A stretch of 64,000 nucleotides of DNA from assembly GCF_000769075.1 (NCBI RefSeq), contig NZ_JRFC01000020.1, forward strand, positions 62,001 to 126,000. The letters run 5' to 3'. This DNA is from Porphyromonas sp. COT-290 OH3588. Lineage in GTDB: Bacteria > Bacteroidota > Bacteroidia > Bacteroidales > Porphyromonadaceae. Below the pieces are notes generated by a model. That model worked only from the letters and a program-made list of their open reading frames with translations. It had not been told where the DNA came from and ran no database searches. The position numbers and the translations under genes are program-made. Shown here one piece after another: positions 7,780 through 55,577 of the stretch (the stretch's first letter is position 1; each line of letters begins with the position of its first letter).

Positions 7780-8115
7780 GGCAGGATTTATATTTTCGCT
7801 CATTTTTCAGATTGTTGATGGGAAAGCATATGAGCGCTTGGGCAAAAATGTGTAGACCTCGTATTTGCCCCTTAGCAAGCTCGACACGGCGCTGGACTTC
7901 GTTCGAGCACTTCTCCTCAGCCCAACAAAGATCCCCACCCAAAACAGACCAAATGCAAAACGCTAGAAAACAAACACATAAATAAATACGCCAAGCTTTT
8001 TCGTCAGCACATGGCATGAGTTTTGTTTTTTCTTCCCATCAATCTTTTGAGGTCAGTGGACACATCGCAGAGGATTAGCCCACCAATCCTCCCAGATTAG
8101 TCCTTCAATTTTTCG
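7780..8115 (-). repeat. Intergenic repeat family, copy A
   Basis: This is one of five homologous non-coding copies (A-E). On the minus strand the order is: degenerate TTGAAGGA box (8108), hairpin region, TTGATGGGAAG (starts 8042), a variable segment, GGGGCAAATAC (starts 7871), and CCCATCAA (starts 7822), ending in GAAAATATAAAT. Landmark spacings are 66, 171 and 49 nt. It points toward the DUF349 gene, which starts about 290 bp further on. A 91-codon open frame inside it is not shared by the other copies. The rest of the 863-bp gap (7495-7779 and 8116-8357) shows only the promoter-like box listed separately. Confidence 0.85.
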
Positions 8116-8357
8116 GCAAAATCGTATCAACCTTCAAGAACCTCCAGCCTATGCTCGCAAGAATGAGCACTAATCCATTTACATACCTTAACAAAAGTGT
8201 AGACAAACGAATACGAGCGCACCTTGGTCTTCAGTACAATGAACTCACCTATCTAGGCTAAGCGATCATGAAAATCCCCTCGACTCAACTTCTGGAGCCT
8301 TGGCTCTGATTTTATTCCTAACTTTATATCGTTAATTGACAAGACAAACTCAAGACG

Positions 8358-9308
8358 ATGGAGCATAATCAAGACAAAAAAGGAACCATTCTCATCACTG
8401 GAGGGCGAAGCCTGATCGGGATAAGACTTACACGACATCTGAGAGAGCAAGGCTATAGGGTTCTGTGGCTCACACGCCATGTAGAGGAGAGCATGGAGGA
8501 GTGCGACGAGGCTTTCTACTGGGATATGGAGGAACGACTGATCGCAGAGCACCCACTACAGCAAGCCGACGTCATCATTCATCTAGCAGGTGTGAGCCTC
8601 TTCGGCGAGCGATGGACCAGAGCTCGCAAGCGAGATATCCTGCGTAGCCGTGTCCTATCGGCACGCCTACTAGTGAATCGCCTCTCACAGATCGAGCACC
8701 ACGTCAAGACAATCATTTGGGGATCATCACTCTTCTTCTACCCCAGTAAGAGCGGGCGCATCTATGCCCACGAAGAAGAAGGGGCAGGGCGCAGCTTCCT
8801 AGCTCAGGCCTACGAGATGCTAGAGGCAGAAGCCTCTAGAGCAAAGGAGCTACTTGGCGTGCGTAGCGTGGTGCTACGACAAGGCTTCGTCCTAGACCCA
8901 CATCGCGGAGGGCTGCCCAATATGCTCCTGCCCGTACGCTTTGGCCTAAACACGCCTTTGGGCAAGGGTAACCAATATGTAAACTGGATACATATCGCCG
9001 ACCTCTGTCGCATCTACACGCACGCCATCGAGCAGGAGCAAATGAGTGGCGTCTACAATGCTTGCGCCGAGGCTCCTCTGACCAACAACCAATTTATGTA
9101 CGGTCTATCGTGCATATCGGGGCACGACCACCTACGTATCCCAGTCCCCAGTAAGCTAATACAAATAGCCCTAGGGGAGATGAGCCGTGATCTACTCAGA
9201 GGAAGACCAGCCAGCTGCGACAAACTCATCGCAGAGGGCTTCGCATTTCAATACCATAGCCTCAACCAAGCCCTAAGGGCTATCTTACGAGAGCGACCTA
9301 TGAGCTGA
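8358..9308 (+). CDS. TIGR01777-type NAD-dependent epimerase (YfcH/SulA-like)
   Basis: 316 residues with an N-terminal Rossmann fold. The glycine motif reads GGRSLIG instead of the usual GGTGFIG, an altered but still plausible loop. DVIIHLAGVSLFGERWT and GVYNACAEAPLTNNQF are typical of the TIGR01777 branch of extended SDR proteins, whose substrate is unknown. A C-terminal DUF1731-like helix region follows (LGEMSRDLLRGRPA). It starts at ATG 8358 and ends 20 bp before the beta-mannosidase gene, so the two are probably co-transcribed. Confidence 0.85.
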   Translation: MEHNQDKKGTILITGGRSLIGIRLTRHLREQGYRVLWLTRHVEESMEECDEAFYWDMEERLIAEHPLQQADVIIHLAGVSLFGERWTRARKRDILRSRVLSARLLVNRLSQIEHHVKTIIWGSSLFFYPSKSGRIYAHEEEGAGRSFLAQAYEMLEAEASRAKELLGVRSVVLRQGFVLDPHRGGLPNMLLPVRFGLNTPLGKGNQYVNWIHIADLCRIYTHAIEQEQMSGVYNACAEAPLTNNQFMYGLSCISGHDHLRIPVPSKLIQIALGEMSRDLLRGRPASCDKLIAEGFAFQYHSLNQALRAILRERPMS

Positions 9309-9328
9309 CCCTTTTTTGTACAATCATT

Positions 9329-11950
9329 ATGAATCGGCTGTATCTATTACTAATCCTACTATTAGCCCATACCACCCTATGGGCTAATTTACATTTGATG
9401 AAACCCCGACAAACCAACACTCAAGCCAAGGTTCGGCAAACCTCTACCCCACTTACCCAATGGCAGTATCAGATGCTAGGCGATAGTCTATGGACAGCTT
9501 GCACTGTGCCGAGCCTCGTCCAAGATGAACTCATCAAAGCAGGCAAGCTACCCGACCCACACTACCGAGCCAATGAGCCCCTAGTGCAGTGGCCTAGCGA
9601 AGAAGACTGGATCTATCGCACGCGCTTTGTGCTCTCGACAGATGCGCTCTCGGCAAATAAAAAGCACTTCCTAGAGCTAGACGGTGTAGACACCTATGCC
9701 GATATATATATCAATGGTAGTCATCTTGGCAGCACGAGCAATATGTTTCTGGCCTATCGCTACGACATCACACCACATATAGCCTCGGGGGAGAACACCG
9801 TAACGGTACACATATATAGCCCTCTCAAAAGGGTTCATGCGCAGTATCTCTCCAATGGCTTCAACTACCCTGCCGACAACGATCACGCCCCTATTCGATA
9901 TAGCCCATTTACGCGCAAAGCTCCCTACCACTACGGCTGGGACTGGGGAATGCGCCTCGTCGCTATGGGACTATGGCGTCCCGTACGCCTAAGCAGCTAC
10001 GAGGAGGCCAGACTAGACGATGTATCGCTATCCACAAGCATCGTCTGGAGCAAAGAGCACCAGCCCACAGAGGCTCGCATCGAGGTTATGCCCGAGCTAA
10101 CTCTATTAACCCCAACCACGGGCCTCTGCTATGAGGTAGCTCTCGAGGACGAGCAAGGGCAAATCTGCGCCAAGAGCCGTAGCACAGACCTCCAGAAGCC
10201 TATAATGCTCACAGTGCAGCGACCTCATCTATGGTGGCCCAATGGCTGGGGAGATCCTTACCTCTATCGGCTATCGGTATCGCTACGCAATGCGCTGGGA
10301 GAGGAACTGGATCACTGGAGCAAACATATCGGCATTAGGGAGATTAAGTTCGTCAATCAGCCTGACCAATGGGGGACTTCTTTCTACTGGGAGGTCAATA
10401 AACGCCCCATATTCATTCGTGGAGCGAACTACATTCCCGGGGAACTACTACTGACCAAGCGACATGGCAAGGATTTTGAGCGCCTATTCGACGACATCAT
10501 CTTCGCCAATATGAATATGATCCGTGTCTGGGGAGGTGGTATCTACGAGGACGAGAGATTCTACGACGAGGCCGACAGACGTGGCATACTCATCTGGCAG
10601 GACTTTATGTTTGCCTGCACTGCTTACCCGAGCGATCGAGAGTTTCTATCCCTAGTACGCCAAGAAGCCGAGTATCAAGTTCGTCGCCTACGCCACCACG
10701 CCTCTCTAGCCCTGTGGTGTGGCAACAACGAAGTCGAGGAGGCTCTCAAATACTGGGGCTGGGCAAGCAGGTACTCCGCAGATCACTATCAACAGATGAG
10801 GCAGGGATACGACCCACTCTTCCGCCAGACACTACCAGAGGTGGTAGCCAACCTAGACGGCCAAAGATGCTATATACACGGCTCTCCCATGCAAGCGAAC
10901 TGGGGTAGACCAGAGAGTTTCGGACATGGCGACAGCCACTATTGGGGACTTTGGTATGGTCAGCAGCCTTTCGAGATTTTTCGCTCCGCTAGGGGTATGC
11001 GCTTCGTCAGCGAGTTTGGCTTCCAGTCCCTACCGACTCATGCCCTAATCTCTAGCTTTACACTGCCAGAGGATCATGATCTGGGCTCCGAGGTGATGAG
11101 GGTGCATCAGAAAGCCTCCACTGGCAACCAACGCATACTGGAGTATATGGAGCAGTACTACCAAGTACCGCAGTCTTTCGATAGACTCGTCTATGTATCT
11201 CAGGTATTACAAGGCAGAGGCATGGCCAAGGCAATACGTACTCTACGTAGCCAACGACCGGTGTGTATGGGTATGCTCTACTGGCAGCTCAATGATGTCT
11301 GGCCTGCTCTCTCATGGAGCAGCATCGACTACGGGCAAAACTACAAGGCTATGCACTACACCACGAGAGAGGCCTACGCCCCTATTGCTCTACTAGCCGA
11401 GCCACTTGGATCGGATTCGATCGCCATCTATGTAGCCAATGACCAGCTACAAGCTCTACAAGAAGGCAAACTAAGCCTAGGGCTCTACGCACTTGGAGGC
11501 AAAGAGATCCGTCAGGCAAGCATCAGTATACCAAACTGCCCACCCAATCAGCTCACACACCTATCGACGATCTCGACACAGGAGTGGGAGTTGGACCCCA
11601 GCTCTAGAGATCGAGTACTATCCATAAGTCTAGAGTTTGCTCATCATGACCCTATTCAACTAGAGTATTACCCTTGCCCGACCAAAGACCTGAAGCTAGA
11701 GCAGGAGCATGTCAAGGTCGAGATACTAGAGCAGAAGCAAGGCGAAGCAACGCTCCGCCTAAGCTCACCAGTACTCATCAAAGACATTTGGCTCACACTT
11801 GCCCAGCAACAGGCTCGCTTCAGTCGCAACTGCTTCGACCTGCTACCAAGGCAGGAGGTTATCGTACAGATCAGACACGAGCAGATCGAGGCCAAGGCTC
11901 CTCTTGACCTACGCCTAATGAGTATGAACCCGACGGCGAATACAATGTAA
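9329..11950 (+). CDS. Beta-mannosidase, GH2 family, exported
   Basis: 873 residues with a signal peptide (YLLLILLLAHTTLWA). It has the GH2 architecture: jelly-roll sugar-binding domain, Ig-like domain, TIM barrel, and C-terminal beta domains. The acid/base Glu lies in WCGNNEVEEA (E468) and the nucleophile in FVSEFGFQS (E562), similar to the positions in the Bacteroides thetaiotaomicron enzyme. It removes terminal beta-mannose, probably from the N-glycan core or mannans, in the periplasm. Length is normal. It fits with the GH92 alpha-mannosidase at 34565, although the two are far apart. Confidence 0.93.
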   Translation: MNRLYLLLILLLAHTTLWANLHLMKPRQTNTQAKVRQTSTPLTQWQYQMLGDSLWTACTVPSLVQDELIKAGKLPDPHYRANEPLVQWPSEEDWIYRTRFVLSTDALSANKKHFLELDGVDTYADIYINGSHLGSTSNMFLAYRYDITPHIASGENTVTVHIYSPLKRVHAQYLSNGFNYPADNDHAPIRYSPFTRKAPYHYGWDWGMRLVAMGLWRPVRLSSYEEARLDDVSLSTSIVWSKEHQPTEARIEVMPELTLLTPTTGLCYEVALEDEQGQICAKSRSTDLQKPIMLTVQRPHLWWPNGWGDPYLYRLSVSLRNALGEELDHWSKHIGIREIKFVNQPDQWGTSFYWEVNKRPIFIRGANYIPGELLLTKRHGKDFERLFDDIIFANMNMIRVWGGGIYEDERFYDEADRRGILIWQDFMFACTAYPSDREFLSLVRQEAEYQVRRLRHHASLALWCGNNEVEEALKYWGWASRYSADHYQQMRQGYDPLFRQTLPEVVANLDGQRCYIHGSPMQANWGRPESFGHGDSHYWGLWYGQQPFEIFRSARGMRFVSEFGFQSLPTHALISSFTLPEDHDLGSEVMRVHQKASTGNQRILEYMEQYYQVPQSFDRLVYVSQVLQGRGMAKAIRTLRSQRPVCMGMLYWQLNDVWPALSWSSIDYGQNYKAMHYTTREAYAPIALLAEPLGSDSIAIYVANDQLQALQEGKLSLGLYALGGKEIRQASISIPNCPPNQLTHLSTISTQEWELDPSSRDRVLSISLEFAHHDPIQLEYYPCPTKDLKLEQEHVKVEILEQKQGEATLRLSSPVLIKDIWLTLAQQQARFSRNCFDLLPRQEVIVQIRHEQIEAKAPLDLRLMSMNPTANTM

Positions 11951-11975
11951 TAAGTGAATAAATAGGGGGAGTAGA

Positions 11976-12003
11976 TTGAGGCAATAAGGGCCAAATAAAT
12001 TTG
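11976..12003 (+). promoter_or_regulatory. Promoter for the nucleoside phosphorylase gene
   Basis: TTG (11976-11978), 17 nt, then TAAATTTG (11996-12003) fits the Bacteroidota pattern TTG-N-TAnnTTTG, with a spacer slightly shorter than usual. The last TTG of the box is in frame with the gene and can be mistaken for its start codon. Confidence 0.5.
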
Positions 12004-12075
12004 GAAAATTGGCTTAATCATCGGAACTTTGGAGCAACGTATATATATTATAAATATCAAAATTCGATTATAGTT

Positions 12076-12954
12076 ATGAGTAACAAGCGAGTTATCCCAC
12101 CGTCCGAACTGATCATCAACGCCGATGGCTCTATATTTCATCTACATATCAAGCCCGAACAATTAGCAGATCGTGTATTCCTCGTTGGCGATCCTGCTCG
12201 TGTAGATCTAGTGGCCAAGCGCTTCGATAGCATCGAGTGTGACATCACGAGCCGAGAGTTCCACACCATTACTGGCATGTATCGAGGCAAGCGCATCAGC
12301 GTAGTGAGCCATGGTATCGGTACCGATAATATAGACATTGTGCTTAACGAGCTTGACGCCCTAGCCAACATCGACTTCGAAACGAGGCAAGTCAAAGACG
12401 AATTTCGACAGCTTACCCTCGTGCGTGTCGGCACCTCTGGTGGCCTGCAAGACGTTAGCCCAATCGGGACTTACGTAGCCGCCTCTCACAGCATCGGCTT
12501 CGATGGCGTAATCTACTTCTACGGCGGTACAGACAAAATCCGCAATAAGACATTCGAAGCCGAGCTATGCAAGCAACTCGACTGGCAGATCGAGGGGCTC
12601 AAGCCCTACGTCGTACCAGCAGATGCATCTCTACTAGAGCAAATCTGCCAAGATGACATTCTGCGTGGCAACACGATTGCAGCCAATGGCTTCTACGGCC
12701 CGCAAGGACGGAGCCTACGCCTCTCGCTACAAGACCCCGAGCTCAACAAGAAGATTCAGGCCTTCGACCTAGACGGGCAGGTCATCACCAATTACGAAAT
12801 GGAGAGCTCCTCTCTAGCAGGTCTAGCAGCTCTAATGGGACATCGAGCCCTCACGGTCTGCTGCATCATCGCAGGACGAAAGGCAGAGAAGATGAATACC
12901 GACTACAAAGGCAGCATAGAGGGATTAATAGATATGGTACTCGAGCGCATCTAA
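12076..12954 (+). CDS. Nucleoside phosphorylase, uridine phosphorylase-like
   Basis: 292 residues from ATG 12076 (MSNKRVIPPSEL). A TTG at 12001 is the tail of the promoter -7 box and cannot be the start. Family motifs are FLVGDPARVDLVAKRF (phosphate site), VRVGTSGGLQ and NYEMESSSLAG (ribose/base site with the Glu-Met-Glu core). It cleaves a nucleoside with phosphate to give the base and pentose 1-phosphate for salvage. The sequence does not settle between uridine and other nucleosides, though the length and motif set favour the uridine phosphorylase-like group. It ends 13 bp before meaB. Confidence 0.85.
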   Translation: MSNKRVIPPSELIINADGSIFHLHIKPEQLADRVFLVGDPARVDLVAKRFDSIECDITSREFHTITGMYRGKRISVVSHGIGTDNIDIVLNELDALANIDFETRQVKDEFRQLTLVRVGTSGGLQDVSPIGTYVAASHSIGFDGVIYFYGGTDKIRNKTFEAELCKQLDWQIEGLKPYVVPADASLLEQICQDDILRGNTIAANGFYGPQGRSLRLSLQDPELNKKIQAFDLDGQVITNYEMESSSLAGLAALMGHRALTVCCIIAGRKAEKMNTDYKGSIEGLIDMVLERI

Positions 12955-12967
12955 CCACAGCAACAAC

Positions 12968-14080
12968 ATGGACATTAACGAAGAACTCCTGCATCACCCC
13001 GAGAACGACCCTGCCTACATGGGGCTCAAAGTAAATCAGGGTGTGAGTGTACAGCCTATGCTCAACCCCAATTTTAGGCGTGTGCCACGGCGTCAGTACA
13101 CAGTCGATGAGTTTGTCGAGGGGATACTCCGATCGGATATTACGATCCTCAGCCAAGCCGTAACGCTCGTTGAGAGCAATCACCCAGATCATCAGGTCAT
13201 CGCCCAGCAGATTATCGAGCGTTGCCTCCCCTACACAGGCAAATCAATCCGCATTGGTCTGACGGGTGTGCCGGGTGCAGGTAAGAGTACCTCGATAGAT
13301 ACCTTCGGAATACACCTGTGTAAGCAGGGGCGCAAGCTGGCCGTCCTTGCAATCGACCCAAGTAGCGAACGCTCTGGAGGAAGTATTCTGGGTGACAAAA
13401 CTCGTATGGAGCAGCTCTCTCACCACCCTAACGCCTTCATTCGCCCTAGCCCTACGGCAGGCTCTCTAGGAGGTGTGGCACGTAAGACCCGAGAAACGAT
13501 CATGCTCTGCGAGGCGGCAGGCTACGACACGATTATTGTCGAAACGGTAGGGGTCGGCCAGAGCGAAACGGCAGTGCACTCCATGGTAGACTTCTTCCTG
13601 CTGATCCAGCTATCGGGAACGGGAGATGAGCTGCAAGGGATCAAACGTGGGATCATGGAGATGGCCGATGCCATCATCATCAACAAAGCAGACGGAGATA
13701 ATATCCCCAAAGCCAATCTAGCAGCCTCGCACTTCCGCAATGCCCTACACCTATTCCCGCCTACAGAGTCGGGCTGGAAACCCAAAGTACTGACCTACTC
13801 AGGCTTCTACGGCCTCGGGATCAAGGAAATCTGGGATATGGTCGATGAGTACCGTCACTTTGCTATGGACTCTGGCTACTTCTACGAGAAGCGCCAAAGA
13901 CAGGCCAAATGGTGGATGTATGAAACAGTAAACGAGGCATTGCATCGCTCGTTCTATGGTAGTGATGTGGTCAAATCCCTGCGTCCGGGCATCGAGCAAC
14001 AGGTGCTAGACGATATGGTGTCCTCCTTCGTTGGTGCGCAGAAGCTCCTCGATGCCTACTACGACTCTCTGAAGGAATAG
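12968..14080 (+). CDS. meaB: Methylmalonyl-CoA mutase-associated GTPase MeaB/ArgK
   Basis: 370 residues. Walker A is GLTGVPGAGKSTSIDTFG (near residue 97), followed by VLAIDPSSERSGGSILGDKTRM, the switch region IIVETVGVGQSE, and NKADGDN for the base. MeaB chaperones adenosylcobalamin-dependent methylmalonyl-CoA mutase, protecting and reloading its cofactor. This fits propionate formation from succinate, common in Bacteroidales. The mutase genes are not in the window. The C-terminal dimer helices are present and the length is normal. Confidence 0.93.
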   Translation: MDINEELLHHPENDPAYMGLKVNQGVSVQPMLNPNFRRVPRRQYTVDEFVEGILRSDITILSQAVTLVESNHPDHQVIAQQIIERCLPYTGKSIRIGLTGVPGAGKSTSIDTFGIHLCKQGRKLAVLAIDPSSERSGGSILGDKTRMEQLSHHPNAFIRPSPTAGSLGGVARKTRETIMLCEAAGYDTIIVETVGVGQSETAVHSMVDFFLLIQLSGTGDELQGIKRGIMEMADAIIINKADGDNIPKANLAASHFRNALHLFPPTESGWKPKVLTYSGFYGLGIKEIWDMVDEYRHFAMDSGYFYEKRQRQAKWWMYETVNEALHRSFYGSDVVKSLRPGIEQQVLDDMVSSFVGAQKLLDAYYDSLKE

Positions 14081-14140
14081 CAGAAGAGAGAGCCAAAGCC
14101 CATAAAACGAGGGCATAGCTTTACCCAAAACACTCTTATC

Positions 14141-14184
14141 CAGAGGCGAGATCTAGTAACTCACTAGGCCTCGCCTCCTTTTTT
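14141..14184 (+). terminator. Rho-independent terminator after meaB
   Basis: Arms GAGGCGAG (14143-14150) and CTCGCCTC (14170-14177) form an 8-bp stem with an inner CTAG/CTAG pairing. A run of six T residues follows at 14179-14184, about 60 bp past the meaB stop. Confidence 0.85.
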
Positions 14185-14273
14185 GTGACACATCGCTCCC
14201 CGAGCAAGGCATGAACCGAAGACTCTTCTTGAGGAAAGTATCGGCAAAAATAATCGTACATGCATATTCTATG

Positions 14274-14281
14274 TATATTTG
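14274..14281 (+). promoter_or_regulatory. -7 box for the glutamate synthase small-subunit gene
   Basis: TATATTTG fits TAnnTTTG and lies 39 bp upstream of the ATG at 14321. Its final TTG is in frame with the gene, which explains an apparent longer reading frame from 14279. No -33 TTG is visible. Confidence 0.45.
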
Positions 14282-14320
14282 TTTCGGTTTATTTCGAATG
14301 AACAAAACGGTATTGGATGT

Positions 14321-15799: not shown

Positions 15800-15814
15800 G
15801 CCATCACTAAGCCT
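15784..15814 (+). repeat. 11-bp tandem repeat at the gltD-priA junction
   Basis: The unit ACTAAGCCATC is present twice (15784-15794 and 15795-15805) with a partial third copy. It contains the gltD stop codon and ends 4 bp before the priA ATG. Because 11 is not a multiple of 3, a gain or loss of one unit would move sequence between frames at the end of gltD. Confidence 0.8.
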
Positions 15815-15818
15815 CAAG

Positions 15819-18332: not shown

Positions 18333-18385
18333 CGCCATCTCCCCCCTAAAAACAGCTCACCCGATAGGACAAAACCCACCATATC

Positions 18386-18413
18386 CCATTGCTTCGCCTA
18401 GCGAAAACAATGG
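18386..18413 (+). terminator. Stem-loop downstream of priA
   Basis: CCATTG (18386-18391) and TTCGC (18393-18397) pair with GCGAA (18401-18405) and CAATGG (18408-18413) around a CTA loop. It lies 53 bp past the priA stop. No T-tract follows, so termination is uncertain. It sits directly at the left end of the block shared by repeat copies B and D. Confidence 0.4.
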
Positions 18414-18417
18414 TAAA

Positions 18418-18875
18418 GGTTATTTCTCCACACCCAATCAACTTGATTTTAGGCCTTCATCCCTCGACTTTTTAGTTAAGGAATGTAAAGGAATTATGCT
18501 TAGATTTTAGAAAGTATAGGGGCTGTTTATAAAGGTTCGCAAGGCAATTCGGGGAGATTGATGGGAAGTTCTTTTCGGATTGGTGGGCTAATCCTCCAAG
18601 ATATGTCCACAAATCCAAATAGATCGATGGGAAGAAACCCTATATTTTTCGCCTCAAGGAGATAAAACCTCAGAAAACATACATCTAAACACCTGACTAT
18701 AAACAAACTGCAAGACGAGCGTTTTGAGAGCGTTTTTGCGTTGAGCTGGGGCGTAGGTGCCCAAACGAGTCTGGACGCAACCTAGAGGCCGCTAGAGGGC
18801 AAATACAAAGCCAGAGGCCTCTCACCTAGGAACCCTCAATCTTGGTCTAAACCGAAAGAAAATCGTTATAAAATG
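18418..18875 (+). repeat. Intergenic repeat family, copy B (long form)
   Basis: Landmarks: TTGATGGG (18558), TCGATGGGAAG (18624), CTAGAGGCCGCTAG, then AGGGCAAATAC (18796). Spacings are 66 and 172 nt. The terminal CCCATCAA module is worn (CCCTCAAT near 18833). An extra upstream block, 18418-18557, is almost the same as 41158-41298 of copy D, so B and D form a subfamily. It is co-oriented with yitT, which starts about 200 bp downstream. The rest of the 742-bp gap (18876-19030) has no other gene that I can see. Confidence 0.85.
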
Positions 18876-19030
18876 TAAATCAACTCTACCACAATTCTCC
18901 CCTAAAAAGAGGTAGTTTAATACGCCAAAAACAACTAATTGAGTGTGCATGGAGGAGCGTCTTGACGAGGGTTGTGGAGAAAATAAATTTTGACATCGCT
19001 CCACATCACTTTTACTCAACAAAAAGTATT

Positions 19031-19038: not shown

Positions 19039-19074
19039 CTTAGTCACGCTCGTCGTAATGTAACTCTAATTCGT

Positions 19075-30658: not shown

Positions 30659-30787
30659 TACCCTTACACCATAAGCCATGGAGCTGGGGGTTTCTACACT
30701 TTTGTAAAAAACACACAAATCAATCGCTCCGAGATCTCATTAGGAGAGTAACCTTATTGGAGAGTCTTCAGGTGACTCTATTGAAAA

Positions 30788-31115
30788 TTGATGGGAAGAC
30801 TTTTTAAGATTAGTGGACTAATCCCTTGCGATGTGTCCACTAATCCTCAAAGATTGATGGGAAGAAATACTTCAAAATCCGACACGAACAAATAAATCCA
30901 CCTAGAGATCCAATATAAAAATTTGATTATCAAGACCTTGATAAACTATCGTTTTGGACAGTTAGTTTCACTAGACTGGGGCTAAGTACTTAAACAAGTA
31001 TGAACGCAATCTAGAGCCTGCTAGGGGGCAAATACGAGGTCTTCCCTCTTTCGTCCAATCGCCTCCTCTTTTTCCCACCAATATTCTGAAATCTGATCTA
31101 AATGCTAAAAATCGG
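30788..31115 (+). repeat. Intergenic repeat family, copy C
   Basis: Landmarks: TTGATGGGAAG at 30788 and again at 30854, CTAGAGCCTGCTAG near 31010, GGGGCAAATAC at 31025, CCCACCAA at 31074. Spacings are 66, 171 and 49 nt. The first module holds the cleanest hairpin of the family: GATTAGTGGAC (30808-30818) pairs with GTCCACTAATC (30835-30845). It is co-oriented with the DPP11 gene 170 bp further on. The remainder of the 709-bp gap (30659-30787 and 31116-31197) shows nothing else clear. Confidence 0.88.
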
Positions 31116-36856: not shown

Positions 36857-36873
36857 GTTGTAGCCGATAGTAC

Positions 36874-36934
36874 AAAAAGAGCGTATCCTAAGTCGCTTGG
36901 TACTGTACCAACTGACTTAGGATACGCTCTTTTT
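36874..36934. terminator. Bidirectional terminator between GH92 and trxA
   Basis: Arms at 36874-36894 and 36914-36934 form a perfect 21-bp stem that begins with AAAAAGAGCG and ends with CGCTCTTTTT. A second inner stem (TTGGTAC/GTACCAA) closes the loop. The A and T runs at the ends make it work in both directions for these convergent genes. Confidence 0.92.
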
Positions 36935-36953
36935 ATGCTCGGGACTAGCTCTA

Positions 36954-41029: not shown

Positions 41030-41099
41030 GCAAAGATAGCTCATTTTAATATGTTTCTATAATGGCAACAATACTGACCATTAAAGCCCAAGAAGAGCC
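41030..41099 (-). repeat. Left arm of a ~70-bp inverted repeat, carrying the dnaE promoter
   Basis: Read on the minus strand this 70-nt arm runs from GGCTCTTCTTGGGC to GCTATCTTTGC and matches 41642-41712 on the plus strand with about eight differences. It contains the -7 box TATCTTTG (41038 down to 41031), 26 bp upstream of the dnaE ATG. Confidence 0.85.
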
Positions 41100-41157
41100 A
41101 TCAACTGAACGAATCTAAGATTTAACATGAAGTCAATACGAGCTTATAACCGCCAGA

Positions 41158-41620
41158 GGTTATTTCTCCACACCCAATCAACTTGATTTTAGGCCTCCAC
41201 TCCTCTACCTTTTTAGTTAAGGAATGTAAAGGAATTACGCTTAGATTTTAGAAAGTATGGGAGCTATTTATAAAGGTTCGCAAGGCGATTCGGGAAGATT
41301 AATGGGAAGTTCTTTTCGGATTGGTGGGCTAATCCTCCAAGGTATGTCCACCAATCCGAATAGATTGATGGGAAGAAATTCTGAAATTTGCTCTTCGCCT
41401 AGATAAAATCGTCCTAAATGTGATTTTATCTATTTGATTATTAGATATCTAAAAAGATACGTTTTAAGCGGCTGTTTTCATTCGGCTGGGGCTAAGTGCC
41501 CAAACGAGGTCGAACTCAATCTAGAGCCTTCTAGGGGGCAAATACTAGGCGTATCCTCCTTTAGCCCTCCCTACCCTAAGTTTCTCATTAACATTCTGAA
41601 ATTTGAGCGAAAATATAAAT
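41158..41620 (+). repeat. Intergenic repeat family, copy D (long form)
   Basis: Landmarks: TTAATGGGAAG (41299), TTGATGGGAAG (41365), CTAGAGCCTTCTAG near 41521, GGGGCAAATAC (41535), CTCATTAA (41584), ending GAAAATATAAAT. Spacings are 66, 170 and 49 nt. The hairpin GGATTGGTGGGC (41318-41329) pairs with GTCCACCAATCC (41346-41357) over 12 bp with one G-U. The block 41158-41298 is shared with copy B. It is flanked by the arms of the long inverted repeat. Confidence 0.9.
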
Positions 41621-41641
41621 TATAGACTAGGTTTGGCTGAG

Positions 41642-41712
41642 GGCTCTTCTTGGGCCTTAATGGTCAGTATTGTTACCATTGTAGAAACATAATTTAAATA
41701 AGCTATCTTTGC
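41642..41712 (+). repeat. Right arm of the inverted repeat, carrying the TonB receptor promoter
   Basis: This 71-nt arm mirrors 41030-41099. It contains TTG (41679-41681), a 22-nt spacer and TATCTTTG (41704-41711), 27 bp upstream of the receptor's ATG. The receptor and dnaE thus have nearly the same promoter sequence in opposite orientation. Confidence 0.85.
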
Positions 41713-44011: not shown

Positions 44012-44032
44012 TTCTACTCTGGCGTATGAAAC

Positions 44033-46011: not shown

Positions 46012-46022
46012 CTAGATTGAAT

Positions 46023-46075
46023 AGCCGAGAGGACGTGCCATAATATCGGTTTATGGGCGCTCTCTCGGCTCTTCT
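46023..46075 (+). terminator. Terminator after the phosphohexomutase gene
   Basis: AGCCGAGAG (46023-46031) pairs with CTCTCGGCT (46062-46070), with a further inner CCATAA/TTATGG stem, followed by CTTCT. It begins 11 bp after the stop codon. Confidence 0.7.
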
Positions 46076-46191
46076 ATCTCATGGTGTCTACTCCACCACG
46101 AGAGCTCTATCACCCACCCTAGCCTCTCTCTATCATCAATCTCATCAATAATCCCCGAACGATTTACTAGAAGTATAGCATTCAAAGAAGT

Positions 46192-47691: not shown

Positions 47692-47710
47692 ACTGCCACT
47701 ACAAATAGAT

Positions 47711-47757
47711 AAGACCACTAGGAGAGGCTTATGAAACTCTCTTCTAGTGGTCTTTTT
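47711..47757 (+). terminator. Terminator between the methyltransferase gene and aroA
   Basis: AAGACCACTAG (47711-47721) pairs with CTAGTGGTCTT (47744-47754), with GAGAG/CTCTC inside, followed by T residues to 47757. The AAG start of the first arm gives a weaker tail for the minus strand. Confidence 0.88.
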
Positions 47758-47792
47758 GCGTTCGGCCAATTAATCCTCTAGGTGGCTATATA

Positions 47793-49091: not shown

Positions 49092-49107
49092 ACTGATTTT
49101 CTATGAC

Positions 49108-49175
49108 AAGAAAGATCCCATCTGCTTGAAGCGACTCGATGGCTCGGTAGTGCTCATAAGACAAGCAGATGGGAT
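49108..49175 (-). terminator. Terminator between the OM barrel gene and aroA
   Basis: On the minus strand ATCCCATCTGCTTG pairs with CAAGCAGATGGGAT (49162-49175 and 49115-49128), 14 bp, followed by CTTTCTTG. The loop is long (33 nt). Partial termination here could control how much aroA is made. Confidence 0.65.
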
Positions 49176-49207
49176 AGTATAGACTTGACAGACTTGTGCT
49201 CTATACC

Positions 49208-51064
49208 CTAGAATGTGTATGTACAGCCGACGTTGGCCACAAAAGGCTGTACTGGATAGCCGAGTACCCAGCTGGGCTGCTCTCCCGGAGCGAACTGGCC
49301 GTCTAGGGTAAGCGTCCACCTCTTGCCGACACGATAAGCTCCAGAGAGGCTAAATACCCCGAAGGTTGGGAGCTCGACGAACTCGGTTCTAGCTCCATTG
49401 GAGTAAGTCAGATCGGCTCTGTAGCCTAGTCCCGTCTGTACTTGATAGCCTACACTCAGATCCGTGTAGCCATTAGGGCGATAGTGTACGCTAGCCTCGA
49501 GCTCGAAGTTTGGTCGTCCCGACAGAGGGTAATGTAACTCTTCACCTGAAGGGAGAGCGACTCCATCCTTGATGCGCCACCGATGGCTACGAGCTGCAAC
49601 CTTAAACGTGTAGGCACGATAGAACGTATAAGCTAGAGCTGCACCAAACTCGTAGTGGTGCGTCGGAGCCGCATCTCGGTAGAAGCGTTTATACCCACCG
49701 ATAGAGTAAATCTCGTTGCTCATAGGCAGCGAACCAAAGTCACTGCTAAGGGCCTGCCCCTGCATTACATAGTCCTCTACGTTGCGCATTAGCTCATAGC
49801 TTGCATATAGCTCGAGAGAGAAGTTAGGGAGGATAAGCCCCGAGAGAGCAAGCCTAGAGGAGAATGGTATGCGTGTGAGCTCCGACTCGTTGAGCAGTGG
49901 CATCCGTGGCAGGCGTAGGGCATGGCTTATTAACCCGTTGCTACGGACTCCTCCGTCAATCTTGGCACTCAGCAGCCAACTCTCCGACCAGCCGATATGT
50001 GCATCAAGACGAGGCCACAGAAGCATCAAGTTCTTATCATCATCTGAGGACTGGAACGAAGCCAAGCCTAGTCCTACAAGTATGCCCCAGTCGAAGCGCT
50101 CCTCAACTCCGTCAATCTGCCACGAGGGGCTAATCTGTATATAGGAGTCGTTGAGCGACTTCTTGCGATCGGGTTCACCTACAGATAGCTCTCGGTCGAA
50201 TAGATAGAGCAGGCCCTCGGCCTTGAAGTCTAGATTGAGCCGACCATAGTCACTCAGCGTACGCCCTAGGAGCAGCTCAACCTTGGGGTTCAGTTCTTTG
50301 AGCTCGCCCTGCTTTACCCAAGCGAGGCTGGGAGCGAAGTGATAATGCCAATTACGCTTGGTAGCCTCTATGGAGCTGATACTCCCACCGATCTGCAAGT
50401 AATGTCTATGCCACATATCATCTTTGAGGGCACGCCAAGCCGAGATCTCTTGATCCGTGTGAGCGACATTCTGCTGTTTGATTAGTAGCCCATAGAAGTT
50501 CTGATGATCCTGCTGGTAGCTTGTAGATAGGTGCCATCTCATATTGCCACTCTGGCGGAAGTAGTCTGCTCCTAGCCCCCAGCTCTGCTCCTTGATAGGC
50601 TGCTCGAGGAGCTCCCCACTAGGATTGTAATGCGTCCACCGACCATTTAGTCTGAGGTCAAGGTAATCCGTCTGAGTATTAATGGGTCGTACGCCTGCCT
50701 CCAAGCGAGCATTGTAGCGTACGCCTAGAGCTCCAGAGAGATAGCCGAGTTGACCACTCTTGCCCATGAGGGTGGGCAGAGGAGCGAGTGAAGTGAGTGC
50801 GCCTACTTGCACTGGTGCATCAAGCCTAGTTAGGGCAGAGGGAGAGAAGTGTTGCCGCTCTGCTGTATAGACCTTCGGGGTCGATAGAGTGAAGCCAATA
50901 GGCGTACGCACCTCGAGCTTGTTCTCCTGCGTAGTCATCACCTTGAGGCTACGCCGTAGTGTATCCACTGGCGTATGGGCACTTTTACTCTGAGCCCAAA
51001 GTATATCGGCACTGGCTAGCCCAAAAACAAGGCTTAGCCCGATGAAGCATATCTTGTATTTCAT
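49208..51064 (-). CDS. Outer-membrane beta-barrel protein, unidentified
   Basis: 618 residues with a signal peptide (FIGLSLVFGLASADILWA). Alternating aromatic and polar strands run to a C-terminal NVGCTYTF, with the terminal Phe expected for a BAM-inserted barrel. I see no plug domain or TonB box, which speaks against a TonB receptor. The ATG overlaps the stop codon of the TPR gene before it (ATGA), so the two are translationally coupled and likely work together. Function unknown. Confidence 0.75.
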   Translation of the reverse strand: MKYKICFIGLSLVFGLASADILWAQSKSAHTPVDTLRRSLKVMTTQENKLEVRTPIGFTLSTPKVYTAERQHFSPSALTRLDAPVQVGALTSLAPLPTLMGKSGQLGYLSGALGVRYNARLEAGVRPINTQTDYLDLRLNGRWTHYNPSGELLEQPIKEQSWGLGADYFRQSGNMRWHLSTSYQQDHQNFYGLLIKQQNVAHTDQEISAWRALKDDMWHRHYLQIGGSISSIEATKRNWHYHFAPSLAWVKQGELKELNPKVELLLGRTLSDYGRLNLDFKAEGLLYLFDRELSVGEPDRKKSLNDSYIQISPSWQIDGVEERFDWGILVGLGLASFQSSDDDKNLMLLWPRLDAHIGWSESWLLSAKIDGGVRSNGLISHALRLPRMPLLNESELTRIPFSSRLALSGLILPNFSLELYASYELMRNVEDYVMQGQALSSDFGSLPMSNEIYSIGGYKRFYRDAAPTHHYEFGAALAYTFYRAYTFKVAARSHRWRIKDGVALPSGEELHYPLSGRPNFELEASVHYRPNGYTDLSVGYQVQTGLGYRADLTYSNGARTEFVELPTFGVFSLSGAYRVGKRWTLTLDGQFAPGEQPSWVLGYPVQPFVANVGCTYTF

Positions 51065-54000
51065 GATTTCTGAGAGTATTTAGTTAGGCGCTGCTCGATC
51101 ATCTCTTGGATATCGGGCTCTGGGTCTTGGTAGTTGTCCTTGAGGCTCTGTATATACTGCTGAGCCAAATAGAGATCTCCCACCGCCTCGCAACTGTCGG
51201 CCAGCAAGACGAAAGCTCTTGCTAGCCAGTACTGCTGAGGGGTACCAGTAGCGACGAACTGCTCCAGCATCTCTTGTGTCTGCTTGGCTTGTCCCAAACG
51301 AAGCATCAGTGTAGCCCTACGTACCATAGCCTCTGCTCCCGCTGGAGTATCAGGGTAGGCCGATAGACTTGCGTATGTCGCTATTGCAGTTTTCACGGCT
51401 TTATTCCCCTCCTGAGCTCTACCTAGCAGAAGCGTCAGCTCCTGCATAGGCTCCGCTGGGAGCTGCTTGCGTCGAAGAAGTTCTTGGGCCACCTCGGCAG
51501 CTAGAGTAAATTGCCCTGCGTCTAGGGCTGTTTGAGCGAGCTTCTGACCAAGCTCTAGGCTAGTTTCCGCCGACCCATGAGCTAGCTGATAGGCCTTACG
51601 GTACGCCTCTACGGCTTCTGCACCACGTCCCAGAGCGAGTAATGTCGCTCCCATCTCGGTCTGCACACGTAGGGACTGCTCTGGCGAGAGGGTAAGCACA
51701 GAGAGCTGACGCAGGCGCTCCAGAGCCTCTCCTCTGCGCTCGGTTTGTATGTAGCGGTCAATGAGTAGCCACTCAGCTCTATAACGGTCGGGACTATCGG
51801 GATAGTCGCCAACGAAGGCCAGTAGCTCCTGCTCTACTCCAGCCTCGGCACGGCGCAAACGGCTCTCAAGGGCTAGATACTTCAAGTGAATAGCGTCTTG
51901 CTCTCTTGGCACAAGTTTACCTCCTAGGCCAGATACAAATGCTGCGTACTCATCGAGGCGATGATTCTCGGCATAGAGGCTTTTTAGATCGCTTAAGGCT
52001 ATCTGGGCTTCACTACTCTCCGGATAGGTAAGCACCACGTGCTTGTAAGCCTCTATCGCCCGCTGCTCATCTCCTTTGTTGGACTGTATCAAAGCTCTTT
52101 CTAGAGCAGCCAGTGGAGCGGAGGGGCTAGAGGGGAATCGCTGCTCTAGTGAAGCAAAGATCTCATCTGCTGCACCCGATTGCTTGCGCCCTATCAGTAG
52201 CGCTCGTCCCTTGTCATAGAGTACATCTGCGACGTAGGCGGACTGTGGGTGCTTATCTAGTAGCTTGTCGATGACCTCTATCTGCCTGTCATACTCGCCT
52301 CTCTGTCTATGTATGGTGGAGGTGCGATAGAGAGCCTCGTCGCTCCCCTCTGGGTGAAGTCTGTCTGCACGCAAATAGCAGGCCATTGCCTCTTGTGGCT
52401 GCCCTCCCTGCCCGAGTAGGCAGTCACCCATACGGCAGAGCGCATCTGCTCTCATCTGTGCTTGTGCGTCGGACGAGGCATATCGGTCTAGGGACTTATA
52501 GGCCTCTGCATACCTCTTCTGGTTGTAGAGGGCATAGCCGTGCAGATAGCTAGCTATACCATGCTCATAGGCGGAAGCCCCTTGCTGCAAACGCATCGCA
52601 GCTGCCGCATCTTGCTCTGCCTCTCGGTACTTGCCCTCTCGCAGATAATAAGTAGCACGCATCACTCGTGCTATGGCATAGGCTTCTCCCTTGCCCGAGA
52701 GGGCGATGGCTTCGTTGAGGGTCTTGAGGTAAGTCGCTGGGTCTGACTCCTGTGTAGAGGCTAGGCGTACTAGGACGTCTTGCTTAGCATCCGTCAGTTT
52801 CTCTCCTTGACTCTCTAGACGTTTGATGAAGTCCAGTTTGCTTTGGTAGTCCTTGCCAACCGAGAAGTAGCCACGTAGCAACTCGATCACTCGTTGGCGG
52901 TGTGGGCTATGGGGATAATCGGCTAGAAATCGCTCGGTCTGTCTGATCTGGCTACCGAAGGCATCATAGCCACGAGAGAAGCCAATCTCAATAAGCTGAT
53001 ACAAGGCTTCTTCCTTGGTCTTGCTGGAGCTCTTGGGGTGCTCCATGACAGCCGAGAGAGCGAGTTGAGCTTGTCCGTCCTGTCCGTCCGCTCTGTACGC
53101 ATTGGCTAGGGCAAACTGAGCGATGGCTCCACGCTCACCTTGAGCAAGTGTAGCACGCTGTAGGGCAGGTATCGACAGCCCCATCTGGCCATTAGCTTGG
53201 CTCTGGGCACGATGATAGTAGGCTGCCCCCAAGGCGAATGCCTCCTCTGCGGTTAGGTTAGGCAGCTCCAAAGGAGCCAAGATGCGAATAGCATTGGTAT
53301 AGTCCCCAAGGGCATAATAGGCTTGCCCCATAGCCCCTTGTAGGCGTATGCGCTCGACAAGCTTGGGGAACCGATGCTGTAACTCTTGCGTACGAGCAAT
53401 GGCCTTGGAGGGCGCCTCTCTCTCGTATGCCATTAGAGCTTGTAGATAGGCAGCCTCTGGGGCAAGCTCTGGGCTCCATGGGTGATCTGCCAGTAGTGTA
53501 GCAGCTCGGCTAGCCTGCCCCTCGCTCCAGTCGAGGTTGCAAAGGTAGAGTATGGCCCACTCTGCCCATATAGATCGGCCCGTAGAGGCCTGCTCTAGCA
53601 GAGCTCTAGCCGCTGGTATGCTAGCAGAGGTATTCTGCTCTGTGAGCATGAGGTAGGCACGTAGTGTCAGGCACTGGGAGTATTCTTCGTCATTGAGTCC
53701 ATCGGCCTGCACTAGGGATAGGTGGTGAGCAGCATTGATGCGGTCACCGCTCTCCATATACACCAGTGCGAGCATAAGCCTAGCCCGGTTGCGATCCATT
53801 GAACTAGGGTACTGCTCTACGAAGTCGAAGAGGACCCGTGCACTAGAGCTCTCTAGGCTCATGAGCTTGGAGAGCGCTTGCATATAGGGCCTCTGATCGG
53901 CATTGGCAAAAGTAATAGGCAGGTGCAGTCGGCTCTGCGAGATACCGATATGGTTTTGTCCCACGGCATATTGCCTCATCTGGCTCTCTAGACTCAACCT

Positions 54001-54081
54001 AGCAGAGGGCAGAGATTGCTGTGCTCCTAGATGAGAGAGGAATAATGTAGACAGACTGAGGCAGAGGACTAAATGTTTCAT
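51061..54081 (-). CDS. Large periplasmic TPR protein
   Basis: 1006 residues with a signal peptide (LVLCLSLSTLFLSHLGAQ). The rest is nearly all tetratricopeptide-like helical pairs (for example GQAYYALGDYTNAIRIL, SYLHGYALYNQKRYAEAYKSL, ALYRTSTIHRQRGEYDRQIEVI, YEHVVLTYPES-like units). It was probably formed from repeated 34-36-residue units and serves as a protein-binding scaffold. Its stop overlaps the start of the barrel gene, suggesting a periplasm-outer membrane pair. No homologue with a known role is recognised. Confidence 0.85.
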   Translation of the reverse strand: MKHLVLCLSLSTLFLSHLGAQQSLPSARLSLESQMRQYAVGQNHIGISQSRLHLPITFANADQRPYMQALSKLMSLESSSARVLFDFVEQYPSSMDRNRARLMLALVYMESGDRINAAHHLSLVQADGLNDEEYSQCLTLRAYLMLTEQNTSASIPAARALLEQASTGRSIWAEWAILYLCNLDWSEGQASRAATLLADHPWSPELAPEAAYLQALMAYEREAPSKAIARTQELQHRFPKLVERIRLQGAMGQAYYALGDYTNAIRILAPLELPNLTAEEAFALGAAYYHRAQSQANGQMGLSIPALQRATLAQGERGAIAQFALANAYRADGQDGQAQLALSAVMEHPKSSSKTKEEALYQLIEIGFSRGYDAFGSQIRQTERFLADYPHSPHRQRVIELLRGYFSVGKDYQSKLDFIKRLESQGEKLTDAKQDVLVRLASTQESDPATYLKTLNEAIALSGKGEAYAIARVMRATYYLREGKYREAEQDAAAAMRLQQGASAYEHGIASYLHGYALYNQKRYAEAYKSLDRYASSDAQAQMRADALCRMGDCLLGQGGQPQEAMACYLRADRLHPEGSDEALYRTSTIHRQRGEYDRQIEVIDKLLDKHPQSAYVADVLYDKGRALLIGRKQSGAADEIFASLEQRFPSSPSAPLAALERALIQSNKGDEQRAIEAYKHVVLTYPESSEAQIALSDLKSLYAENHRLDEYAAFVSGLGGKLVPREQDAIHLKYLALESRLRRAEAGVEQELLAFVGDYPDSPDRYRAEWLLIDRYIQTERRGEALERLRQLSVLTLSPEQSLRVQTEMGATLLALGRGAEAVEAYRKAYQLAHGSAETSLELGQKLAQTALDAGQFTLAAEVAQELLRRKQLPAEPMQELTLLLGRAQEGNKAVKTAIATYASLSAYPDTPAGAEAMVRRATLMLRLGQAKQTQEMLEQFVATGTPQQYWLARAFVLLADSCEAVGDLYLAQQYIQSLKDNYQDPEPDIQEMIEQRLTKYSQKS

Positions 54082-54211
54082 ACCTAAAGTAATTCAAAAA
54101 CTTGATACATATTTTGACAAAGATAACAAACACAGCTCAAATGCTCCTCTGCTCATGTACTCGGCTTGCCAATACATAAATAAGGACACCATCTGAGCTG
54201 CCTCTATAGCT

Positions 54212-54268
54212 CTAGCGAGAGAGCCAAAGACTGCCCGTCTTGCGTACTGCCCTCTAGTGGCTCGCTAG
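54212..54268 (-). terminator. Stem-loop at the end of the NlpC/P60 gene
   Basis: CTAGCGAG (54212-54219) and CTCGCTAG (54261-54268) form an 8-bp stem that includes the gene's stop codon. The loop is long and no T-tract follows, so termination is doubtful. Confidence 0.3.
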
Positions 54269-54978
54269 TCTAACTGGCAAGAGGGTGGCGGAGTAAGTGC
54301 CGACCACAAACTAGGCGTCGGCTCTAGCCATGGTAGAGGCGGCTGAGCGACTGTGGGGCGAATGGGTGTATTGCGTGTCTGTGGCGTGTCGATACCAGAC
54401 TTCTTGAGCATCTCGGACATCCACGGCAGACGCCCCACGTATAGGAAGCGCTTGTTGAAGTAGCCGCTTGACTTGAGCTTGTGCTTAATGATACCACGGC
54501 TATTAGTACTGTGCATAATAGTCAGATCTCCGTCCTTATTGTCCACCACGAGGGCCACATGGCCTACTCGAGAGCTAGAAGCATTGCGCCCCTTGAAGAA
54601 AACCAAATCTCCGGGTCTAGCCTCTGCGACTTTCTTGACGAAAGTGCTTAGTGCTGCCGATGAGCGGGGAATCTGTACACCTAGCATCTTATATAAATAA
54701 GATACGTAACCAGAGCAATCCAACGGCCAAGGAGCTATGCCTCGTGAGCGGTAGGGTTTGCCGAGTAGTCGCTCACCGCTGCGTATGAGCTGCGAGAGCG
54801 CTTCCTCCAGCAGAGGCTCGTCCGTGCTAGCAGCCCGTGACACTTGCGCTGTCTGTATGCTGTGACTTGTGGCAGGCTTGCTTTTGCTCTTCTTATTGCG
54901 TGCGGCGCAGCTAACCAGAGGTAGCGAGAGCAGTACTAGCAGATAGAGCCGAGAGGCTAGAGTATATTTGGGGTTCAT
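54265..54978 (-). CDS. NlpC/P60 (C40) cell-wall peptidase lipoprotein
   Basis: 237 residues from ATG 54978 (MNPKYTLASRLYL; the in-frame TTG at 54984 is unlikely). Lipobox LPLVSC near residue 24. The C40 domain has the catalytic Cys in PLDCSGYVSYLY and the His in RVGHVALVV, with HSTNSRG as the third site. It would cut peptide cross-links of peptidoglycan in the periplasm. The last 50 residues are Pro-rich and disordered. It is the only gene between the TPR gene and repeat copy E. Confidence 0.92.
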   Translation of the reverse strand: MNPKYTLASRLYLLVLLSLPLVSCAARNKKSKSKPATSHSIQTAQVSRAASTDEPLLEEALSQLIRSGERLLGKPYRSRGIAPWPLDCSGYVSYLYKMLGVQIPRSSAALSTFVKKVAEARPGDLVFFKGRNASSSRVGHVALVVDNKDGDLTIMHSTNSRGIIKHKLKSSGYFNKRFLYVGRLPWMSEMLKKSGIDTPQTRNTPIRPTVAQPPLPWLEPTPSLWSALTPPPSCQLD

Positions 54979-55239
54979 CAGCAATCTTTATCTATTGATT
55001 TTGTCGTATTTTACCAGATATGTAAGCATTATAGCTATGAGTTTGTTGTAGCAAGGAGATAGAGTGGCGCACATAAATCTCCTCACACCGGCGTGATAGC
55101 TATCAGTACTTACACAATATGGCAACGAACGAAAATAAACATTTATTATGAAATAGGGCATAACCTCCATGGACGAAGATCTAAACTGACTGTTAAAAGA
55201 TGTTATCAATCTATGGATCAATTGTCGAAAATTAGTTGG

Positions 55240-55577
55240 GATTTGCTGAAAAATTGAAGGACTGATTTGGGAGGATTCTAGGACTCATTTCTCTAGATGT
55301 GTCCTACAATTCGCATAGATTGATGGGAAGAAATACGCAACAGTAAAGCTCCAATCTACTGAATATGCCAACAAAACATTTTATACAACTGATTATCAAT
55401 AGGATAACAAAAATCTATTTTAGGCAATTATTTTTGCTGAGCGGAGCGGAAGTGCCCCAATAAGAGAAAATGCAATCTAGAGCCTCCTAGGGGGCAAATA
55501 CGAGATCTACACATTTTCCCCAAAGCGCTCATGTGCTTTCCCATCAACATTCTGAACTCTGACCTGAAATATAAATC
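55240..55577 (+). repeat. Intergenic repeat family, copy E
   Basis: Landmarks: TTGAAGGA (55254), TTGATGGGAAG (55320), CTAGAGCCTCCTAG near 55477, GGGGCAAATAC (55491), CCCATCAA (55540), ending GAAATATAAAT. Spacings are 66, 171 and 49 nt. Its start resembles copy A (GCTGAAAAATTGAAGGACT). The hairpin GGATTCTAGGAC (55273-55284) and GTCCTACAATTC (55301-55312) keeps pairing through changes on both sides. Unlike the other copies it is not co-oriented with a downstream gene. The gap 54979-55239 shows no gene. Confidence 0.88.

What the first reader, a model, noticed from the sequence alone, without database searches (positions are those of the whole stretch)
7780..55577. Five-copy intergenic repeat family with fixed internal geometry
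Copies A (8115-7780, minus), B (18418-18875), C (30788-31115), D (41158-41620) and E (55240-55577) share three blocks: a TTGATGGG-flanked hairpin module, a CTAGAGCC-CTAG-GGGGCAAATAC block, and a terminal CCCATCAA-TTCTGAAA block ending in ATAAAT. First-box to second-box distance is 66 nt in all five. Second box to GGGGCAAATAC is 171, 172, 171, 170 and 171 nt. That block to CCCATCAA is 49 nt in A, C, D and E. The ~100-nt segment between the first two blocks has diverged heavily, yet keeps its length. TTGATGGG at the front and CCCATCAA at the back are inverted, as in a MITE or a folded RNA. No transposase and no shared reading frame are present. It may be a non-autonomous element, a family of structured RNAs, or both.
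Basis: seen in the sequence. Interest (0 to 1): 0.8.

Follow-up and report, generated by a model that had tools for sequence, protein, structure and literature searches.

The report
Genus-wide four-unit intergenic DNA arrays
The five repeats belong to a family of about 145 intergenic elements built around four 22-letter DNA units, and related bacteria carry arrays with similar spacing but unrelated letters, which points to a shared DNA-binding system whose recognition code differs from species to species.

Summary
The repeat family is real and far larger than reported: about 145 copies in the window's genome, about 75 in a sister species, none convincing in 24 other genus genomes. It fails the tested MITE marks (terminal inverted repeats, target duplication), and no RNA covariation was found. 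In 310 kb read gene by gene, elements occupy 13 of 18 divergent, 10 of 64 tandem and 0 of 15 convergent gaps, and on the contig tested they are spaced more evenly than gap type predicts. At two sites shared with the sister species the copies are hardly more alike than random pairs. In part-genome samples of five more genus members a leading intergenic repeat family shows a 21-23-nt period with private sequence (clear in three, mixed in two); three lineages share the four-unit format. One word has 446 sites in its species and at most 2 elsewhere, another 396 against at most 6. Neighbouring genes are not conserved between distant species. Most likely the arrays seat a multimeric DNA-binding protein with a lineage-private recognition sequence; binding and function are inferred. 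Closest printed case seen: the 23-nt BrickBuilt element of P. gingivalis.

The parts
7785..8211 (-). element copy A (full unit)
   Evidence: profile matches
18457..18880 (+). element copy B (full unit, degenerate 3' block)
30691..31111 (+). element copy C (absent at the orthologous place in G023)
41203..41621 (+). element copy D
55181..55577 (+). element copy E
8023..8110 (-). four 22-nt units of copy A
18556..18643 (+). four 22-nt units of copy B
30786..30873 (+). four 22-nt units of copy C
41297..41384 (+). four 22-nt units of copy D
55252..55339 (+). four 22-nt units of copy E
7860..7891 (-). TAGAGCC-CTAG-GGGCAAATAC block, copy A
18776..18807 (+). same block, copy B
31005..31036 (+). same block, copy C
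41515..41546 (+). same block, copy D
55471..55502 (+). same block, copy E
7785..7822 (-). CCCATCAACAATCTGAAA..ATAAAT block, copy A
31074..31104 (+). same 3' block, copy C (variant)
41584..41621 (+). same 3' block, copy D (variant)
55540..55577 (+). same 3' block, copy E

Best explanation
Each repeat is a DNA-level binding platform, not an RNA gene. Its core is four 22-nt units (about two helical turns each) that would seat a multimeric DNA-binding protein on one face of the helix. In this two-species lineage the array has grown into a ~430-nt element with further conserved blocks at fixed distances. Other species of the genus carry arrays with similar spacing but a private sequence, so the system's format is inherited while its recognition sequence is replaced. 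New versions appear to take over by copying into, or recombining with, existing intergenic sites. Because neighbouring genes are not conserved but spacing and promoter-side location are, I think the likeliest role is organising the chromosome between transcription units, with self-propagation a close second. Shown: the family, the 22-nt phasing, location, spacing, private sequences, turnover at some shared sites, lack of RNA covariation. Inferred: that a protein binds, that it is one homologous protein across the genus, and what it does.
For: 22-nt phasing in own copies: autocorrelation 0.56 at lag 66, 0.40 at 22, 0.38 at 44, mean 0.26; GAT at columns 125, 147, 169 in 75, 60, 90% of 106 own and 93, 78, 93% of 46 G023 copies, 1-3% at other columns. 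Same-strand 8-mer distances 66/22/44 (G011), 46/23/69 (G013), 22/44/66 (G022, few), 23/46 (G014), 21 (G020). Four-unit extent: own 13 of 15 arrays (judged by end units 66 nt apart), G011 22 of 25, G014 17 of 23. Private sequences. Gaps occupied: divergent 13 of 18, tandem 10 of 64, convergent 0 of 15; 74 divergent and 3 convergent of 129 elements in two species. Spacing on C23: CV 0.39 against 0.71 in a gap-class-matched null, 0.0006 of 5000 as low. Shared sites: two pairs at 0.57 and 0.59 identity, background 0.54. No regulon conservation: 11 of 71 against 15 of 145, p 0.19. No covariation. 200 kb of E. coli show no such arrays.
Against: No binding protein has been identified. First-unit starts carry GAT in only 17% (own) and 0% (G023); lags 70 and 67 also score 0.37 and 0.36 in own copies, and in G023 lags 64 and 68 edge out 66. 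Four-unit extent is not universal: G013 2 of 15 (range 3-13), G022 2 of 8 (4 have 5), G020 3 of 13 (2-6); G022 and G020 show more than one unit type, and in G020 the commonest tandem period is 7 (12 arrays), not 21-22 (10). Spacing is less regular in G011 and G014 (CV 0.71, 0.85) and G022 (0.74). G011 and G014 flanks show no analogue of the long element's other blocks. Some interiors may be orthologous: L013/L151, sharing the upstream flank, are 0.67 identical, rank 1 of 46. Only five other genus genomes were sampled, 180-260 kb each, and no Bacteroidales outside the genus, so a genus boundary is not shown.
Confidence: 0.5

Rival explanations
1. Selfish non-autonomous mobile elements. Each lineage was colonised by its own intergenic minisatellite-bearing element, moved by a transposase or recombinase encoded elsewhere, with survival mainly between divergent promoters.
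For: High copy number; presence/absence at copy C between sister species; sequence subfamilies, each dominating one species; over-dispersion could be target immunity (inference); P. gingivalis BrickBuilt was filed as a MITE (PMC4596501, sections read).
Against: No terminal inverted repeats, no target duplication; copies are on average 0.54 identical yet one block keeps 79-80 nt in 141 of 152 copies; independent invasions need not share a period near 22 nt and a similar density in each species sampled (mixed in G022 and G020).
Confidence: 0.3
2. Binding arrays of a global transcription regulator (a large regulon) whose site coevolves with its protein in each species.
For: Promoter-side location; palindromic units in G011 and G014.
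Against: Genes beside arrays are not shared between distant species beyond control; in tandem gaps element orientation is neutral, 27 against 25; 13 of 18 divergent gaps are occupied.
Confidence: 0.12
3. A family of structured non-coding RNAs.
For: Local inverted repeats are visible and length is fixed; the unit 2/unit 3 hairpin is 0.83 paired in own copies against 0.24-0.47 when slid.
Against: No covariation; the same hairpin is 0.58 paired in sister copies; no Rfam match at gathering score over the elements.
Confidence: 0.05

Closest known systems
BrickBuilt of Porphyromonas gingivalis (PMC4596501; abstract, sections 5, 9, 10 and part 1 of 2 of section 7 read)
   Same: Intergenic, dispersed, lineage-restricted, 23-nt tandem units between conserved leader and tail; outward promoter activity was reported there in E. 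coli.
   Different: 19 copies in the strain described, 1 to 22.8 units and 84-991 nt; IS5-like terminal inverted repeats (both in 4 of 19) and duplications at three of those four. Here about 145 copies, four units, about 430 nt, no terminal inverted repeats or duplication found, spacing more regular than chance.
Prokaryotic MITEs (review PMC10969869, passages read)
   Same: Under 500 nt, non-coding, intergenic, many copies.
   Different: No terminal inverted repeats or direct repeats found here; core is a phased four-unit array.
Plasmid iterons (recalled)
   Same: Tandem units of about 22 bp in helical phase bound by a multimeric protein.
   Different: Here hundreds of sites dispersed over a chromosome, not one origin.
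Species dialects of DNA uptake sequences (recalled)
   Same: Species-private words repeated through a genome.
   Different: Those are about 10-12 nt and much denser; here arrays occur about once per 9-25 kb.

Membership tests
MITE | terminal inverted repeats | tested here: not met
   Consensus ends CTTTTTnGTTAA... and ...TATAAATC are not inverse; TTGATGGG/CCCATCAA is internal, the latter in 52 of 106 own copies.
MITE | target-site duplication | tested here: not met
   Over 145 copies with enough flank, at most 15 share a 5-mer and 4 a 6-mer at any fixed pair of borders tried; the 5-mer looks like consensus AAATC at both ends.
MITE | presence/absence at orthologous sites | tested here: met
   Copy C is missing in G023 with both flanking genes in place, but the site is not clean; one site only.
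MITE | related autonomous transposon | not tested
Structured RNA family | covarying helices | tested here: not met
   103 own copies; main hairpin, own and G023.
Structured RNA family | match to a described family | tested here: not met
   over the whole window only a tRNA reaches gathering score; (copy D region only): weak hits at E 0.35-4.9.
Structured RNA family | transcription | not testable with these tools
   No RNA data.
BrickBuilt-type minisatellite element | 22-23-nt repeat units in an intergenic element | tested here: met
BrickBuilt-type minisatellite element | terminal repeats and variable unit number | tested here: not met
   No terminal inverted repeats; extent of four units in 13 of 15 own arrays. 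The BrickBuilt sequence itself was not compared.
Iteron array bound by a multimeric protein | units in helical phase at fixed number | tested here: met
   fixed number in three lineages only.
Iteron array bound by a multimeric protein | cognate protein | not testable with these tools
   Needs a pull-down or ChIP.

The most novel reading that the evidence does not exclude
A genus-wide chromosomal system of fixed format and private code: hundreds of 22-nt-phased units in short arrays, about one array per 9-25 kb, mark the gaps between transcription units in each of the seven species looked at, while the sequence read by the cognate DNA-binding protein is replaced wholesale in each lineage, a bacterial counterpart of rapidly evolving centromere or PRDM9-type sites.
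Probability: 0.35. Interest if true: 0.92.

Novelty: new variant of a known kind. Interest (0 to 1): 0.74.

Why it matters
If the arrays are read by one orthologous protein, closely related bacteria keep changing the address code written hundreds of times on their chromosomes while keeping its layout, which is unexpected for a DNA-binding protein with that many sites. It gives a concrete, testable handle on chromosome organisation and species barriers in oral Bacteroidota, and recasts a MITE reported in P. gingivalis as one possible case of a wider pattern.

Tried and rejected
Structured RNA: rejected on covariation. MITE: defining features not met. Phage or plasmid origin: one copy (D) gave no blastn match to 50,697 phage and 72,556 plasmid records; no viral contig holds the exact second-block pattern. 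Protein-coding: the tblastn matches between elements follow DNA similarity; coding was not tested further. Recombination breakpoints at elements: of 9 G023 elements with flank matches on both sides, 2 keep both flanks of one own element, 6 join flanks of two own elements (less firmly L056, one flank flipped, and L070, one flank 1.4 kb away), and L055 is unclear (matches under 150 nt, under 80% or over 3 kb away were dropped). In the window A, B and D lie at ends of collinear blocks, C does not, E was not tested, and one break falls in a gap without element. G023 has no element at the B and D breaks, so this is association, not mechanism, and I do not build on it. Regulon: rejected as main reading. 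A TonB-type receptor was a poor choice for orthologous sites, replaced by dnaE. The G020 flank alignment failed, only 1 array being selected. Papers: the listings show no genus-wide 22-nt array system; they cover open-licence PMC only.

Full report
Names. The tools show the genus only as 'g1'.

Observation. All five copies and their distances are confirmed, with a one-nucleotide difference in how one distance is counted. For A, C and E the unit is longer than drawn: a conserved 5' block CTTTTTnGTTAAGGnnTGTAAAnGAATT lies about 85 nt before the first box.

Copy number and range. One copy used as blastn query found 46 matches in the own genome with only 40 of 153 candidates scored. The box AGATTGATGGGAAGAAA gives 141 sites at up to 2 mismatches, control 0, and 1 site in G023. 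The second block gives 125 sites at up to 3 mismatches, control 0. A sequence-only profile of a 79-nt block, built from 76 of 152 copies, gives 145 matches in the own genome and 75 in G023 (at most 150 candidates scored per genome, so the first is a lower bound) and one marginal match (E 0.084) in the other 24 genus genomes. blastn found none in 23 other genus genomes or 16 genomes of the order. G023 uses another box, AGATTAGTGCAGAGAAA: 74 sites there, 2 in the own genome, at most 1 in each of the other 24, where the control also reaches 1. A few copies of the other species' type occur in each genome. G023 is close (dnaE 95% identical protein); the next relative is at 74%.

Constancy and divergence. 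Among 152 aligned copies (106 own, 46 G023; hits under 100 bits and duplicates dropped) mean pairwise identity is 0.54 within own and 0.68 within G023, yet the 79-nt block measures 79 or 80 nt in 141 of 152 copies.

Location. In 310 kb read gene by gene (contig C23 and the window), elements lie in 13 of 18 divergent gaps, 10 of 64 tandem gaps and 0 of 15 convergent gaps of at least 60 nt; ORFs were called by a simple longest-first rule, and 23 gaps account for 23 of about 25 elements. Over loci of both species, 129 elements with a gene on each side (5 with one gene only dropped) give 74 divergent, 27 tandem parallel, 25 tandem antiparallel and 3 convergent. Spacing on C23 has CV 0.39 against 0.71 in 5000 placements with the same gap-class make-up (fraction 0.0006); no spacing is under 4 kb (2.5 expected, fraction 0.042) or 6 kb (3.7 expected, fraction 0.005). 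A cruder test on 88 elements of five contigs against uniform placement gives CV 0.59 against 0.97 and 1 of 83 spacings under 4 kb against 18.8 expected.

Turnover. Flanks of 109 own elements were compared with the G023 element loci held. Two G023 elements keep both flanks of one own element, yet these pairs are only 0.57 (rank 1 of 46) and 0.59 (rank 20 of 46) identical against a background of 0.54 (sd 0.04). In L122/L065 and L003/L042 homology resumes only in the last third of the element or later; in L095/L156 it ends after the 5' block. Against this, L013/L151, which share the upstream flank, are 0.67 identical, rank 1 of 46. Copy C is absent from G023 inside a collinear block of about 22 kb (2 kb of it not queried), about 80 unrelated nt standing in its place. 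So sites and flanks can persist while element interiors are exchanged.

Not an RNA, not a classical MITE. A scan of 5-pair stacks in 103 own copies finds no outstanding helix (best sum 7.1, mean -0.2, sd 1.4, scattered positions). The visible hairpin between units 2 and 3 is 0.828 paired in own copies against 0.24-0.47 when slid, so the complementarity is real, but shuffles give 0.821 (30 of 300 reach the observed value) and in G023 it is 0.58. Target duplications were not found. The loop of unit 2 reads in reverse complement in 11 of 46 G023 copies and 3 of 106 own copies, natural for a dyad read as DNA.

The 22-nt phasing. Columns 100-190 show autocorrelation peaks at 66 (0.56), 22 (0.40) and 44 (0.38) in own copies, mean 0.26; lags 70 and 67 follow at 0.37 and 0.36, and G023 is less clean (64, 68, 66, then 22). 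In A-E 16 of 20 units begin with GAT at steps of 22 nt. GAT is found at columns 125, 147 and 169 in 75, 60 and 90% of own and 93, 78 and 93% of G023 copies, but at the first unit start in 17% and 0%.

The rest of the genus. In five other genus genomes the largest set of mutually similar intergenic regions was taken (gaps of at least 100 nt): G011 23 of 95, G013 15 of 43, G022 12 of 61, G014 20 of 67, G020 23 of 61; own C23 19 of 60. Commonest same-strand distances of their commonest 8-mers are 66/22/44 (G011), 46/23/69 (G013), 22/44/66 (G022, 7, 5 and 3 cases only), 23/46 (G014) and 21 (G020); own C23 gives 66 alone. With a unit profile, arrays extend over four units in 13 of 15 (own, judged by the two end units), 22 of 25 (G011), 17 of 23 (G014), 2 of 15 (G013), 2 of 8 (G022) and 3 of 13 (G020). 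In the consensus, G011 and G014 arrays are four palindromes (21 of 24 and 14 of 18 arrays aligned), with flanks near background. The words are private: CGACCTACNGTAGGTCG (<=2 mismatches) has 446 sites in G014 and at most 2 in each of 25 other genomes, where the control reaches 7; CTGAGGGATATCCCTCAG (<=3 mismatches) 396 in G011 and at most 6 in each of 25 others, control up to 4. E. coli K-12 1-200,000 through the same steps gives a largest set of 7 of 63 gaps and no tandem period of 20-24. G022 and G020 hold more than one unit type, and in G020 period 7 is commonest, so 'one family per genome' is not exact there.

Gene neighbours. Genes whose 5' side faces an array in G011, G013 or G014 have a homologue beside an own element in 11 of 71 cases, against 15 of 145 for genes facing gaps without array (p 0.19). 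The arrays do not detectably follow particular genes.

Reading. The format is shared and the sequence is not; location follows transcription layout, not gene identity; unit steps match two helical turns. The simplest account is a DNA-binding protein that assembles on phased units and whose recognition sequence has been replaced in each lineage, with arrays spreading into old sites. A selfish element system recognised by fast-evolving recombinases would explain much of the same and is the main rival. The nearest printed case seen is BrickBuilt (PMC4596501; abstract, sections 5, 9, 10 and part 1 of 2 of section 7 read), intergenic with 23-nt units but variable in number and reported with IS5-like ends. 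The MITE review PMC10969869 was read in passages. Other papers were seen in search listings only.

Noticed in passing
window 41050-41110 and 41631-41691: A 61-nt inverted repeat (89%) brackets element D on both sides; no such pair was listed around the other four copies.
   Followed up: no
window 18417-18667 and 41157-41408: Copies B and D share about 250 nt at 89-91%, including about 40 nt of 5' flank, a likely recent duplication.
   Followed up: no
G023 element loci, unit 2: The 8-nt loop of unit 2 (GTAGGACT) is reverse-complemented in 11 of 46 G023 copies and 3 of 106 own copies, as if the small palindrome flips repeatedly.
   Followed up: partly
upstream flanks of several elements, e.g. 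L009, L013: Seen by eye: a second repeat (GCGTCGCTACAA-type palindromes) recurs within about 100 nt upstream of elements, perhaps terminators.
   Followed up: no
L029 3' flank 1822-2012: Another dispersed intergenic repeat matches 8 G023 locus ids (two are one place) at 71-84%.
   Followed up: no
window 36869-36939: 35-nt inverted repeat, 89% complementary, 1-nt spacer, between convergent ORFs.
   Followed up: no
window 55873-55961: tRNA-Ser (gga) on the minus strand, about 300 nt from element E.
   Followed up: no
G013 arrays (L253-L261): Array extent in G013 ranges from 3 to 13 units with very regular array spacing (CV 0.33, minimum 6.6 kb, 15 arrays), so unit number can vary while spacing stays regular.
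   Followed up: no
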